A DNA stretch of 64,000 nucleotides, taken from assembly GCF_008831285.2 (NCBI RefSeq), contig NC_045148.1, positions 8,437,001 through 8,501,000 of the forward strand. The letters run 5' to 3'. Shown here piece after piece: positions 35,545 through 61,615 of this stretch; the first letter of the stretch is position 1, and the number at the start of each line of letters is the position of its first letter. Made by a program: the position numbers and the translations under genes. This DNA is from Nymphaea colorata (lineage: Eukaryota > Streptophyta > Magnoliopsida > Nymphaeales > Nymphaeaceae). The notes beneath the pieces were generated by a model. That model had not been told where the DNA came from. It saw only the letters and a program-made list of their open reading frames with translations, and did no database searches.

Positions 35545-35748
35545 CCGAGTGGTGTGGCGCCGAGGCTGGCAGGGTTTGCAGGAGATATCCTGGCTTGACG
35601 ATACTGCGGACGGGATACTTCTCGATGTTCTTGTAGTAGTCGGCGATGAAGTCTACCATGATAGAGCTTGTTTCCTGAACTCTTCTGCCTGTAAGGGCTG
35701 GAACCCTTCAGCCATGAAGTCAAGGCTACATGAGTTTAGGCTTCCCAT
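35545..35748 (-). pseudogene. Inverted 5' fragment of an aromatic amino acid decarboxylase
   Basis: Minus-strand ATG at 35748, then MGSLNSC and [17 protein letters not shown] as in the intact copies. A 2-bp deletion in the CAAGCTCATATC block shifts the frame before [16 protein letters not shown]. Homology ends in the PxHSEPL region at about 35545. It lies head-to-head with the pseudogene at 36949. Confidence 0.88.
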
Positions 35749-36010
35749 CTCTTTAGAACAAATCCTGTAACAGAAGAATCAATCGTCTAGCAAGATCTCT
35801 CCCTCTCTCTCTCTTTCCTCTCTAATGAAAGATCAAGTGATAATTGGACGGAGGTTGGTGGTAGTGCAGGAGGAAGATGGAGGGTTTACATAGAGCTGCA
35901 GCTACCGGTCGTTTACCCGTGGTTCCTGGTCGTCAGTCCACACTTGCGCGCGGAATTGACGATGGAGAGAATGGAAATTAAATGGAGAATTTATAATCCT
36001 GTTTGATTCA
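35749..36010 (-). promoter_or_regulatory. Promoter and 5' UTR of the inverted decarboxylase fragment
   Basis: Shares the 5'-UTR text of the other copies (AATTATCACTTGATC, GAGAGATCTTGC) and the CCTCCGTCC block, in inverted orientation. The TATA box is altered to TATGTAAA (plus strand TTTACATA, 35885-35892), where the other three copies have TATATAAA. Confidence 0.7.
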
Positions 36011-36049
36011 CACCTAAAAACAATCCTCACACCGCCCCTGCATGAATGC

Positions 36050-36330
36050 TCATAATAAACAGCTCTGTAGTAGATCTACTTACATGCATATATAGTAACA
36101 ACTTATGGCAGTTTAACAAGAGTTTATAACTTTTTCTCAAACTTTTTTTAAATTCTTGATCATCCAGAAACTATGAATTATGTATATATAAAACCTTTCA
36201 AATACATAATCAAATAATTGAAGGTTGGTTTATACGCATATGCACCGGGAAAAAATGGAGTATTTGGGATATTTTGGATACTTTTTTTAAAAATAAATTT
36301 TTAATTTTTAATTTTTTTGCTAAACTTTTT
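36050..36330 (+). repeat. Orphan decarboxylase 3'-flank remnant
   Basis: GTAGTAGATCTACTTACATGCA, CAGTTTAACA, AACTATGAATTA and ATGCACCGG with GGAGTATTTGGG align with sequence about 400 bp downstream of both intact genes (48190-48420 and 61905-62130), yet no gene lies directly upstream. It marks a further ancestral copy. Confidence 0.75.
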
Positions 36331-36494
36331 TGCTATCATTATTTTTTTGTAACATGGCTATTTTAATCATGTGCACAATTTTTTTGCTAAACTTTTTCGC
36401 TATTATTATTTTAAGGTTGGTTTATTTTTTTTTGTCTCTTTCTTTTTTTCTTTTTTTGTCTCTTTGTTATATATTTTCATTTTATCGGCACTTT

Positions 36495-36620
36495 TATATA
36501 TATATATATATATATATATATATATATATATATATATATATATATATATATATATATATATATATATTATATATATATATATATATATATATATATATAT
36601 ATATATATATATATATATAT
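36495..36620. repeat. (TA)n microsatellite
   Basis: About 126 bp of nearly pure TA, with one AT phase slip near 36566. Tyr/Ile-rich open frames on both strands here are artefacts. Confidence 0.98.
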
Positions 36621-57850: not shown

Positions 57851-58874
57851 AAGCTCAAGCAAGGGAGGAGGGTGGGTGGGACCCGCCTAGGCCATGGCCT
57901 CACCCCCAACCAAATGAAAAAAAATACAATGTAAAAATTTATTTATTTTTTTTTTTTGCTTTGATGTATTTTTTGAGTGTGAGTTCAGTTTGGCTCTACC
58001 CAAACCCAGCCCCATTTAGCTCGCCTGTGAAGAAAATCCTAGCTTCGCCCTTAGGCTGAAGGTTTCATGCCGAGCTCGAGTTGACTGAACTCAGATGTGG
58101 GATTTAGCTGCGTCTCCTATTTCATGAGATCGAATTTTTATCCTTGAGAATGGAAGAGTTCAGATTGCTTAATTAAGTTTTGGTTTTTTTTTTCACATAA
58201 TAGTAAAATGCCATGATTGTTTACTTCTGGGTCTCACATAAAAAGAATTTATGATTTATATCAGCCTCGGATTTGAGAACCAAAACACAAAATAGAATTA
58301 AATGTCACGACCACAAGAATACAACCTTCCCGTCCTTTAGGTAGCTTAGTGTACGAAAGTCACAAGACATAGCCCCTTTCGTCTGCACATGGCAACATGC
58401 CAACCCGTTTTTTGCATCACAGGCAATAAATTCACATCTCGTGGTTGTAATCGATTCGTGAGGTGGAATGTAGTCAAGTCTTTTTCTAATGATATGACAA
58501 ACTTTTACAATGGCAGACTTTTTATAATGATAATAATCATGGAAAATACTTCTCCCTTTACTATCAAAGGGCTCTATTTTCCTGGGTAGGTTGGAAAATA
58601 TTTCTCGGTCTCTCGATTTTCTTGGGTCTGTTAAAGAAATTTGCAGCTAAAAATATAAAATACTGAAAAAAATTGAATCTATGGAAACTTGACCACCTAG
58701 TTGCGCTGAGCACGTTTATATTGAATTAGTTTGTTATGCACAAATTTTTGTGCAGTATGAGCAAAATATCTTTTTAAAAATAAAAATCAAAATAAAAAAG
58801 TAAAAAACCTAAAGATAAAATTTTAAAATTATAATAGTACCCATTGTAAAGGATACCATGCACAAGAGCGAAGC

Positions 58875-59402
58875 TAGGGGTGAACAACGAGCTCGACTCA
58901 TTAAAGCTTGGCTCGTGAATGAATTCGAGTCTAGTCATTTGCTTAACGAGTCGAACTCGAGTTCATGAGTTGACTTGTTCAAATAATCAAGTTGAGTTCG
59001 AGCTTAATACGTAACTGTCGAGTTGATTTTTAATCGAGTTTGTCGAACCTTAATCAAGTCGATATATTGAAGCAAGTTTACGAGTTTGTCGAGCCGTAAT
59101 CGAGTCGAGCTCGAGCTCAACACGTAACGATGAATATCAATTTGACTCAAACGAGTTTGTCGAGTTTTAATCGAGTCGAGCTCTAACTCAACAATAACGA
59201 CGAATATCATTTGTATTCAAACGAGTTTGTCGAGCCTTAATCGAATCGAGCTCGAGCTCAACGCTTAACTGCCGAGTGGAGCTCGAGCTGCTTCCGCCAA
59301 ACTATTTTTGAGATCGAGCCGAGTCTAAGCTCGAGGTTTCATTAATCAAGCCAAATTCAAGCTAACTAAATTCGGGCTCAACTAAACTTGTGTTCACCTC
59401 TA
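58875..59402. mobile_element. AGGGGTGAACA-family element, second copy in unit B
   Basis: CTAGGGGTGAACAACGAG on the left and GTGTTCACCTCTAG on the right, with the same internal ~60-bp repeats. It sits directly upstream of the third gene's promoter region, as the 45107-45646 copy does for the second gene. Confidence 0.65.
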
Positions 59403-59879
59403 GCTGCAGCCAACTTCTAGTGACTAAGCTCTTTTAAATTGGCAACGGCGTCGACTGTCGATGGAGGCGGGAGTCATTTACTCAGATGTGGGATTTAGCT
59501 GCCTCTCTCATGAGATCGAATTTTCATCTTTAAAAATGGAAGAGTTTAGTCAGATTGCTTAATGATGTCTTCTTGGAAACAAAAACCTGTGGAACTTCTT
59601 TGATGCATATGTATCTTGCAAGTGCAAAAGAGAAGAGGCATTCAAGAGACCATGAATAAGCAGGGGCACGTGGTCGACGCTGCCGCCTGGTGACTTCAGA
59701 GTGAATTATTTTTTTTTTTCACTTTTTACTAAAAGCAGGGGCGTGATGAGAAACAAATTTTCCTTTTGTAAAAGGGTTCGCGTGTTCTTCATGTTCTTTG
59801 TTTTTTACCAAGATGGTGAAAGTGATGGATCCAAACTTGTTATGCATGCAATTCTGCTTTTAATTACCATTCTCTTCAT

Positions 59880-60097
59880 CGTTAATTCCGGGAAACTGCA
59901 GACTGATGACCAGGAACCATGGGTAGCTGCAGCTCTATATAAACCCTCCACCTTCCTCCTGCACTACCACCAATCTCCGTAGTCGGTCCAATTATCACTT
60001 GATCTTCAATAAGAGAGAGGGAGAGATCTTGCTAAGTGCTAGCTACCTTTCCTTTTGCAGAAGTTGATTCTTCTGTCACAGGATTTGTTTTAAAGGA
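59880..60097 (+). promoter_or_regulatory. Core promoter and 5' UTR of the second intact decarboxylase
   Basis: TATATAAA at 59936-59943, 155 bp before the ATG, in the same block (ACCAGGAACCATGGGTAGCT, CCCTCCACCTTCCTCCTGCA, AATTATCACTTGATCTTCAA) as the other copies. The leader is closer to the pseudogene's (GATTTGTTTTAAAG before ATG). Confidence 0.75.
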
Positions 60098-61615
60098 ATG
60101 GGGAGCCTAAACTCATGCAACCCTGACTTCATGGCTGAAGGGTTCCAGCCCTTACAGGCAGAAGTGTTCAGGAAACAAGCTCATATCATGGTAGACTTCA
60201 TAGCCGACTACTACAAGGACATCGAGAAGTATCCCGTCCGCAGTGTCGTCAAGCCAGGATATCTCCTGCAAGCCCTTCCGGCCTCGGCGCCATACCACTC
60301 GGAGCCACTAGACGACATACTTGATGACGTTCAGAGGCTAATCATGCCGGGAATCACACACTGGCTCAGCCCCAACTTCTTTGCGTATTTCCCAGCCACG
60401 TACAGCACCGCCGGCTTCCTCGGCGAGATGTTGTCTTCCTCCTTCAATGTCGTTGGCTTCAACTGGCTATCGTCGCCGGCGGCCACTGAGCTCGAGACGG
60501 TGGTCATGGACTGGCTTGCCCGCCTCCTTAAGCTGCCTTCATCTTTCATGTTCGCCAGTGGCAACGGCGGCGGCGGTGTCATCCATGGCACCACCAGTGA
60601 GGCCATGTTGTGTACAGTCGTTGCTGCAAGGGAGCGTGCGCTCAACAGGATCGGTGGCGCCAATGGCGGCCGTCTGGTCGTGTACGCCTCCGATCAGACC
60701 CACTCCACATTCGCCAAGGCATGTAAGCTTGCTGGGATTGCACCAACCAACATCCGGGCACTGCCAACGTCAGTCAGCCATGACTTTGCGCTCTCACCTA
60801 GCTTGGTCCGAGCAGCCATGCAAGCAGACGTAGCAGCAGGGCTGGTGCCACTGTATCTTTGCGCGACAGTGGGGACGACGTCCTCGAATGCCGTGGACTC
60901 CGTCCAGCAGCTCGGCCAGGTTGCCGCCGAGTTCGGAGCTTGGCTCCATGTCGATGCGGCCTACGCAGGCAGCGCCTGCATTTGCCCCGAGTTCAGGCCT
61001 TACCTCGACGGGGTTGAGCTAGCCGACTCGCTCAGCATGAGCCCACACAAGTGGCTGCTATCGGGTCTAGACTGCTGCTGCCTATGGGTCCGTGACTCGA
61101 GCGCCCTAACTCGAGCGCTGTCCACCAACCCGGAGTACCTCCGGAACGACGCGAGCGAGTCGAAGGAGGTGATCGACTACAAGGACTGGCAGCTCGGAAC
61201 GGGGCGGAAGTTTCGGGCGCTCCGCCTGTGGATGGTGCTGCGGAGCTACGGGGTGGCGCGGCTGCAGTCGCACATACGCAGCGACGTGAGGCTGGCGAAG
61301 CGGTTCGAAGGTCTGGTGGAAGCGGACGAGCGGTTCGAGATCGTAACGCCGAGACGGTTCGCGCTGGTGTGCTTCAGGATGAAGGTGGAGGCGGGACGTG
61401 ACGGGGCGGAAGCGAACCGGGAGCTGATGGAGGCTGTGAACCGGACCGGGAAGGCGTACATGACTCACACGGTGGTGGGCGGCGGCTACGTGCTCCGGTT
61501 CGCGGTGGGCGCGTCGTTGACGGAGGAGCGGCACGTGGATGGTGCGTGGTCGCTGGTTCAGGAGAAGGCCAAGGAGTTGATGAGTCGTGCAGGACTCGAT
61601 TGTGGTGGAGAGTGA
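60098..61615 (+). CDS. Aromatic L-amino acid decarboxylase, likely tryptophan decarboxylase (second intact copy)
   Basis: Intronless, 505 aa; an estimated 96% identical in protein to the 508-aa copy, differing by a 3-codon gap near the N-terminus and scattered substitutions (QRL for RRL, LARLL for [13 protein letters not shown] for [16 protein letters not shown] for [14 protein letters not shown] for WQIGTG). All key residues are kept: H202, D286, K318 in [10 protein letters not shown]347 in NPEYLRN, G369 in the GTGRKF stretch. Same predicted cytosolic PLP-dependent decarboxylation of tryptophan. No frame damage. The few pocket-adjacent changes (I/L before GTG) could tune kinetics, but that is speculation. 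AATAAA lies at 61673-61678. Confidence 0.93.

What the first reader, a model, noticed from the sequence alone, without database searches (positions are those of the whole stretch)
35545..61615. Tandem decarboxylase array: two intact genes, one deleted copy, one inverted fragment
Four pieces of one gene family share promoter and flanks. Both intact proteins keep the PLP lysine (K321/K318), the decarboxylase-type loop Tyr (Y350/Y347) and Gly (G372/G369) at the site reported to set indole versus phenol preference, predicting tryptophan decarboxylase. Near-identity suggests recent duplication or gene conversion, a common route to increased tryptamine or alkaloid output.
Basis: partly seen in the sequence, partly recalled or inferred. 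Interest (0 to 1): 0.75.

Follow-up and report, generated by a model that had tools for sequence, protein, structure and literature searches.

The report
Plant tandem tryptophan decarboxylase gene array
A plant chromosome, probably from a water lily, carries two intact copies and two broken pieces of a gene for the enzyme that probably turns tryptophan into tryptamine; this is an ordinary duplicated gene family, useful mainly as a sign that this enzyme type may be old in flowering plants.

Summary
Window 46289-47815 (B) and 60098-61615 (C) are intact intronless aromatic amino acid decarboxylase genes; 36690-37918 (A) has lost the catalytic core; 35540-35991 (I) is an inverted 5' fragment. All four share promoter sequence, and a genome search with promoter plus gene found that promoter nowhere else.

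Tryptophan decarboxylase (TDC) is the best reading, but not because of the Gly alone: Gly also occurs in chain 6eei (Phe loop) and another gene of this genome. Stronger: B and C match 6eew (recalled as Catharanthus TDC) at 13 of 13 chosen sites and group with it and chain 6khn, 'Tryptophan decarboxylase 1' (98.6/99; 98.9/97 with a bacterial outgroup), also with those sites masked.

B and C are not very recent (dS 0.12-0.13) and constrained (dN/dS 0.11-0.14). Whole-gene conversion is not supported; a less diverged 3' flank and an A-like promoter in C hint at local exchange.

The genome also holds a TyDC-clade gene, a 6eei-clade gene and a separate three-gene clade. An ordinary birth-and-death array: new member of a known kind. 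Activity, expression and species are untested.

The parts
46289..47815 (+). Copy B: intact intronless aromatic amino acid decarboxylase ORF, 508 aa, predicted tryptophan decarboxylase
   Evidence: Pfam PF00282 E 6e-115; closest PDB chain 6eew, 708.6 bits; K321, Y350, G372; TDC clade
60098..61615 (+). Copy C: intact intronless ORF, 505 aa, 95.9% identical to B over 508 aligned columns
   Evidence: PF00282 E 1.4e-115; tblastn; K318, Y347, G369
36690..37918 (+). Copy A: promoter plus gene remnant with large internal deletions; pseudogene without PLP lysine, loop Tyr and selectivity Gly
   Evidence: blastn/tblastn blocks; gap list
35540..35991 (-). Fragment I: inverted promoter, 5'UTR and about 80 codons, frameshifted
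35559..37112 (.). Head-to-head inverted repeat made by fragment I and the 5' part of copy A (arms 35559-36037 and 36643-37112, 77%), promoters facing outward
   Evidence: Self-blastn; inverted arms
36491..36625 (.). (TA)n microsatellite between the two arms
36063..36331 (+). Piece of gene 3' flank (like 48185-48456 after B), left between I and A
   Evidence: 82.3% to the B flank, 79.9% (over a slightly longer stretch) to the C flank;
46073..46288 (+). Promoter and 5'UTR of B (TATA-like CTATATAAACCC)
59850..60097 (+). Promoter and 5'UTR of C; resembles A more than B
   Evidence: A-C 20 of 241 against B-C 35 of 206 sites different; 6 of 7 informative four-way sites AC|IB
48166..48808 (+). Stretch of 3' flank with low B/C divergence, possible exchange tract
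   Evidence: 27 differences in the lowest 600-site window of noncoding and fourfold sites, none of 3000 permutations as low; A-side copy 17-18% away, B-C 12 of 269
45106..45644 (+). Dispersed repeat of about 540 bp inside the duplicated upstream flank
   Evidence: 44 match rows in the genome with only 40 of 1162 candidates scored
49686..51254 (+). Downstream part of the duplicated unit, 79% like 39295-40764 behind copy A (two blocks)
55282..57859 (+). More diverged second copy of the upstream unit (75% to 43088-45577), ahead of C's own upstream copy 58259-60097
51543..53663 (-). Copia-type retrotransposon remnant between B and C
   Evidence: RVT_2 and SH3_retrovirus domains

Best explanation
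The locus is a tandem array of a tryptophan decarboxylase (TDC-clade aromatic amino acid decarboxylase), grown by duplication of a unit of roughly 10 kb holding upstream flank, gene and downstream flank, then eroded by birth and death. Two copies, B and C, stay intact under purifying selection and most likely both make a PLP enzyme that decarboxylates L-tryptophan to tryptamine (PLP on K321/K318; the loop Tyr keeps the reaction on the amine and not the aldehyde course). Copy A lost its catalytic core by deletion, and fragment I is an inverted leftover. Shown here: anatomy, clade, active-site residues, selection. Inferred: substrate, activity, expression, dosage effect.
For: Anatomy of the four pieces and their shared flanks. 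Pfam and PDB matches, with 6eew first. B and C equal 6eew at 13 of 13 catalytic/pocket sites, including Ala103, Thr369 and Gly370; the five other genes of this genome that I aligned differ from it at 3 to 6 of them (most of the site list is recalled). TDC split 98.6/99 in the 12-sequence tree; 98.7/98 with the 13 sites masked; B/C with TyDC, with the three-gene clade or with the 6eei clade rejected by the AU test, p 0.002, 0.005 and 0.023; 98.9/97 with a bacterial outgroup. dN 0.015-0.017, dS 0.12-0.13. PMC12717157 (passages) lists tryptamine, putatively identified, in flower but not in stem or leaf of Nymphaea nouchali; this bears on the case only if the plant is a Nymphaea.
Against: No activity, transcript or metabolite data for this plant. 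Few references: 5 plant chains from the PDB plus this genome's 7 genes, with only two TDCs among the references. The SH test does not reject the 6eei-clade or three-gene-clade placements (p 0.088, 0.076). Gly is not diagnostic. 6khn, a TDC, has Ser at site 103 and Val at 369, so the pocket sites are not a strict code. B is about as similar to 6eem, a tyrosine/dopa decarboxylase (61.5%), as to 6eew (62.0%). Within the TDC clade the branching is unresolved (41.4/52).
Confidence: 0.8

Rival explanations
1. B and C are broad or phenol-preferring decarboxylases (Tyr/Dopa/Phe), TDC-like only by ancestry.
For: Gly is shared with 6eei, the C12 gene and a bacterial homologue. Identity to 6eem (61.5%) is about the same as to 6eew (62.0%).
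Against: 13 of 13 sites as 6eew, while the five other genes aligned from this genome differ at 3 to 6; clade support. The genome has a separate TyDC-clade gene for that role (C1:28465691, 99.9/100 with 6eem and 6liu).
Confidence: 0.12
2. One of the two copies is redundant or silent and decaying, so that the array does not raise tryptamine output.
For: Two of the four pieces are dead already; promoter and 5'UTR differ between B and C at 35 of 206 sites, and the leader of B lacks about 24 bp and 11 bp that C has.
Against: Both ORFs intact with dN/dS 0.11-0.14 between them.
Confidence: 0.3
3. B and C were homogenised over the whole gene by recent gene conversion.
For: Low divergence at the 3' side: 2 of 76 fourfold sites at 47411-47815 and 40 of 657 sites at 48101-48800, against 11-14% upstream; permutation p 0.0003 or less for windows of 200-600 sites. 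The A-side copy of the 3' flank is 17-18% away, so constraint is the less likely cause there. Max-chi2 on all coding changes p 0.019.
Against: Fourfold sites upstream in the CDS differ as much as the flank does (10 of 84, 13 of 119); synonymous changes are spread evenly (p 0.53 and 0.10). Just behind the stop codon B and C differ at 12 of 126 sites, so the tract is not continuous; and at the 3' end of the CDS even broken copy A is only 3-4% away, so low divergence there is not special to B and C.
Confidence: 0.05
4. Assembly artefact: two haplotypes placed in tandem.
For: None directly.
Against: Silent divergence of about 12%, unequal flanks and a copia remnant between the copies, 13.8-kb spacing and a third, broken copy in the same array.
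Confidence: 0.03

Closest known systems
PDB 6eew, 'Aromatic-L-amino-acid decarboxylase' (recalled as Catharanthus roseus TDC; its loop Tyr falls on 348, as PMC11308512 passages give for CrTDC)
   Same: 13 of 13 compared sites; same clade; best PDB match of B
   Different: 62% identity; no STR or MATE gene seen beside B/C, though only 8 other ORFs were scanned
PDB 6khn, 'Tryptophan decarboxylase 1' (recalled as rice)
   Same: Same clade, loop Tyr, Gly
   Different: 61% identity; Ser at site 103 and Val at 369
PDB 6eem and 6liu, tyrosine/dopa decarboxylases (recalled as Papaver)
   Same: Same family, loop Tyr
   Different: Ser103, Leu369 and Ser370; they cluster with another gene of this genome, C1:28465691
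PDB 6eei, 'Tyrosine decarboxylase 1' (recalled as Arabidopsis phenylacetaldehyde synthase)
   Same: Gly at the selectivity site
   Different: Phe loop; groups with the intron-containing C12 gene of this genome
STR-TDC-MATE cluster of alkaloid plants (PMC7810986, passages)
   Same: Contains a TDC gene
   Different: Among 8 other window ORFs scanned, 4 are retroelement, 1 aspartyl protease, 1 nucleoside transporter just under its cut-off, 2 without match; exons of other genes may have been missed

Membership tests
Plant aromatic amino acid decarboxylase (group II PLP decarboxylase) | Full Pyridoxal_deC domain with PLP lysine | tested here: met
   PF00282 over model positions 1-375 of 375 in both; K321/K318
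Plant aromatic amino acid decarboxylase (group II PLP decarboxylase) | Tyr, not Phe, on the catalytic loop (amine, not aldehyde) | tested here: met
   Y350/Y347; role of this Tyr from PMC11308512 passages
Tryptophan decarboxylase | Groups with characterised TDCs | tested here: met
   98.6/99, masked 98.7/98, with outgroup 98.9/97; only two TDC references; SH test weaker than AU test
Tryptophan decarboxylase | Gly where tyrosine decarboxylases have Ser | tested here: met
   G372/G369, but Gly is also in 6eei and the C12 gene, so it is not sufficient; Gly/Ser rule from PMC4993783 passages
Tryptophan decarboxylase | Activity on L-Trp and not on Tyr/Dopa | not testable with these tools
   Needs enzyme assay
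Aromatic acetaldehyde synthase | Phe on the catalytic loop | tested here: not met
   B and C have Tyr
Tandem gene array | Copies with shared flanks in head-to-tail order | tested here: met
   A, B, C head to tail with shared upstream or downstream blocks; I is inverted
Alkaloid gene cluster (STR-TDC-MATE) | Partner genes next to TDC | tested here: inconclusive

The most novel reading that the evidence does not exclude
If the plant is a water lily (inferred), one genome of an early-branching flowering plant holds a TDC-clade, a TyDC-clade and a 6eei(PAAS)-clade gene. The split into these enzyme types would then predate the last common ancestor of living flowering plants, and tryptamine-making would be an ancestral trait. 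In addition a fourth clade exists (C1:33247885, C2:2728519, C1:33093074) with Gln at the pocket position where the five solved plant chains compared have Pro, one member having changed, independently of the PAAS clade, to the Phe loop of an aldehyde synthase.
Probability: 0.55. Interest if true: 0.5.

Novelty: new member of a known kind. Interest (0 to 1): 0.35.

Why it matters
Tryptophan decarboxylase is the gate to tryptamine, serotonin, melatonin and indole alkaloids in plants (established knowledge). A TDC-clade array in a probable water lily helps to date the origin of tryptophan-specific decarboxylation, gives two enzymes for testing which residues set indole preference, and warns against calling TDC from the single Gly. 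The array itself is ordinary plant gene duplication.

Tried and rejected
Gly as sole proof of tryptophan preference: rejected, since 6eei, the C12 gene and a bacterial homologue carry it. Whole-gene conversion: not supported. The 136-bp palindrome between I and A: it is only a (TA)n repeat. I plus A as a hairpin RNA source that silences B and C: considered; the promoters face outward and I have no transcript data, about 3%. Dating by the C1/C2 pair as a whole-genome-duplication yardstick: its dS is 0.115-0.137, like B/C, and I cannot tell what event made that pair, so no date is given. NCBIfam on B and two paralogues: only matches far below every cut-off, no name gained. Species naming: 407.8 Mb and C1-C14 of 12.6-44.0 Mb resemble the Nymphaea colorata genome (409 Mb, 14 pseudo-chromosomes; PMC7015852 passages), but 783 contigs and a 7.3-Mb C15 do not follow from that paper; SABATH-family matches on C11, among other contigs, are only compatible. 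Left as inference. Alkaloid-cluster partners: 8 ORFs only.

Literature: ten searches. The direct ones for Nymphaea or water lily with TDC/AAAD were (1, 1 and 2 papers; by title and start of abstract none is about these genes). Searches showed only the top of longer lists (20 of 69, 20 of 29, 12 of 60, 15 of 4,067), so they prove no absence. The library lacks most subscription papers; a 2020 structural paper on plant AAADs (recalled) was not held. Papers used were seen as passages only.
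Full report
OBSERVATION. The window lies at G000:C11:8437001-8501000 of a 407.8-Mb genome in 783 contigs. Two long ORFs are intact: B (46289-47815, 508 aa) and C (60098-61615, 505 aa). Each carries one full Pyridoxal_deC domain (E 6e-115 and 1.4e-115) in a single open frame. The proteins are 95.9% identical over 508 aligned columns, with 18 substitutions and three gap columns in my alignment; the CDS agrees at 1456 of 1515 sites.

THE BROKEN PIECES. Copy A (36690-37918) matches B in three blocks. Its main gaps against B are 27, 195, 324 plus 129, 7 and 10 bp (gaps of 2-6 bp left out), so the codons of the PLP lysine, the loop tyrosine and the selectivity glycine are absent. 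The two blocks on either side of the 195-bp gap overlap by four bases in A (CGGC), which suggests a deletion between short direct repeats (inference). Fragment I (35540-35991, minus strand) holds promoter, leader and about 80 codons with a 1-bp deletion. I and the 5' part of A form a head-to-head inverted repeat (35559-36037 and 36643-37112, 77%) around a (TA)n tract and a leftover of gene 3' flank at 36063-36331.

ARRAY STRUCTURE. Blocks behind A (39295-40764) recur behind B (49686-51254, 79%); blocks ahead of B (43088-46072) recur ahead of C, partly twice (55282-57859 at 75%, and 58259 onward within a block of 87%). The duplicated unit thus spans upstream flank, gene and downstream flank; corresponding points of A and B units lie 9.6-10.4 kb apart, those of B and C 12.3-13.8 kb. 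A copia remnant lies between B and C. The upstream flank holds a dispersed repeat of about 540 bp: 44 match rows with 40 of 1162 candidates scored, most covering only that part of the query. With promoter plus gene as query, the genome gave 11 match rows, six from the four pieces here and five from other family members, starting inside the coding part.

AGE, SELECTION, EXCHANGE. Between B and C dN is 0.015-0.017 and dS 0.12-0.13, by three methods. In the 118 codons of the middle block that A keeps, dS is 0.306 (A-B), 0.186 (A-C) and 0.157 (B-C). The 5' flank of B and C differs at 230 of 1743 sites. So the B/C duplication is not very recent, and the proteins are constrained. Synonymous changes are spread along the CDS (longest gap p 0.53, max-chi2 p 0.10); with nonsynonymous changes included, p is 0.13 and 0.019. 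On noncoding plus fourfold sites, B/C divergence is 11-14% in the 5' flank and in the CDS up to 47410; then 2 of 76 at 47411-47815, 31 of 163 at 47816-48100 (poorly aligned in part), 22 of 300 at 48101-48400, 18 of 357 at 48401-48800 and 60 of 466 beyond; scan windows of 200-600 sites give p 0.0003 or less, lowest in 48166-48808. The A-side copy of that flank differs from B and C at 46 and 49 of 266 sites, while B and C differ at 12 of 269, which favours local exchange over constraint there. Against one continuous tract: just behind the stop codon B and C differ at 12 of 126 sites, and at the 3' end of the CDS even A is close to both (11 and 8 of 284). In promoter and leader C is nearer to A (20 of 241 sites) than to B (35 of 206), and 6 of 7 informative four-way noncoding sites group A with C and I with B (p 0.007 against one third; five of the six lie within 25 bp and may be one event). 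Over a longer 5' stretch with about 200 coding bases B and C are the closest pair (90.6% against 89.3% for A-C). The array thus looks mosaic, and the conversion idea may be right locally, but not for the whole gene.

WHICH ENZYME. The best PDB match of B is 6eew (708.6 bits), then 6eem (689.3). Organisms of the chains are recalled; the loop Tyr of 6eew falls on 348 and that of 6eem on 350, as PMC11308512 passages give for CrTDC and PsTyDC. I compared 13 sites; most of this list is recalled from the structural literature, while the loop Tyr, the Gly/Ser site and the Ser/Ala site are supported by passages of PMC11308512, PMC4993783 and PMC11507401. B and C equal 6eew at 13 of 13. C1:28465691 equals 6eem at 13 of 13. 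The C12 gene differs from 6eei at one. The five other genes of this genome differ from 6eew at 3 to 6 sites, 6khn at 2. Gly alone is not diagnostic: 6eei and the C12 gene have Gly with a Phe loop, and the bacterial homologue L026 has Gly with Tyr.

PHYLOGENY. With 12 sequences (480 columns, LG+G4) the split {B, C, 6eew, 6khn} against the rest has 98.6/99 support (SH-aLRT/ultrafast bootstrap), and 98.7/98 with the 13 sites masked. AU tests reject B/C with TyDC (p 0.002), with the three-gene clade (0.005) and with the 6eei clade (0.023); the SH test rejects only the first (0.031; 0.076 and 0.088 for the others). B/C with 6khn alone is not rejected (AU 0.508); B/C with 6eew alone is by AU (0.0003), not by SH (0.251). 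With the bacterial outgroup (48% identity to B) the TDC clade has 98.9/97; it joins TyDC plus the three-gene clade (89.3/85), the latter two grouping weakly (76.4/71).

THE REST OF THE FAMILY. A protein search of the genome gave 31 match rows. Intact intronless genes besides B and C number four: C1:28465691 (TyDC clade, 99.9/100), C1:33247885 and C2:2728519 (92% identical), and C1:33093074. The last three form a clade of their own (99.5/100) with Gln where the five solved plant chains have Pro102 and Met where these have Leu or Phe (325). C1:33093074 has Phe in place of the loop Tyr, an aldehyde-synthase signature outside the 6eei clade. The C12 gene (18.4468-18.4527 Mb) is split into at least ten coding pieces and groups with 6eei (100/100). 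Around C1:28465691 lie broken copies at about 28.4622-28.4628, 28.4765 and 28.4843-28.4851 Mb, so this family has a second eroding array.

PLANT. If it is a Nymphaea, tryptamine itself is on record: PMC12717157 (passages) lists tryptamine, putatively identified, in flower but not in stem or leaf of N. nouchali. It also lists a 'hydroxy tyramine' in all three organs whose printed formula C10H13N2O+ is that of protonated serotonin, not of a tyramine (my reading).

VERDICT. An ordinary birth-and-death tandem array of predicted tryptophan decarboxylase genes with two intact members. The wider point, a TDC clade already present in a probable early-branching angiosperm, is the most interesting reading and needs wider sampling and enzyme assays.

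Noticed in passing
G000 C1:33093074-33094528 (L005): Intact intronless paralogue with Phe in place of the catalytic-loop Tyr and Gln at the Pro102 site: a predicted aromatic aldehyde synthase outside the 6eei (PAAS) clade.
   Followed up: partly
G000 C1:33247885-33249345 (L004) and C2:2728519-2729979 (L006): A 92% identical gene pair on two chromosomes, with Gln and Thr at pocket sites 102 and 103; substrate not predictable from the chains compared.
   Followed up: partly
G000 C12:18446760-18452739 (L009): Intron-containing AAAD gene with Phe loop and Gly, grouping with 6eei (recalled as AtPAAS).
   Followed up: partly
G000 C1:28462249-28485110 (L010-L012): A second eroding array, TyDC clade: one intact gene and at least three broken copies.
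   Followed up: partly
G000 C13:12104420, 12229482 and 12283216 (and 12321333, weaker): Three AAAD 3' fragments with the same score (query residues 440-482), as if carried in a repeated unit; a fourth, weaker one nearby.
   Followed up: no
window 3233-6754 (-): Copia-type polyprotein in two adjoining long ORFs (RVT_2; integrase, SH3 and gag-pre-integrase domains).
   Followed up: no
window 31392-32152 and 33609-34350: A 0.77-kb direct repeat, 91% identical.
   Followed up: no
PMC12717157, Table 1, peak 124: Compound named 'Hydroxy tyramine' carries the formula of protonated serotonin; probably a naming slip (my reading).
   Followed up: no
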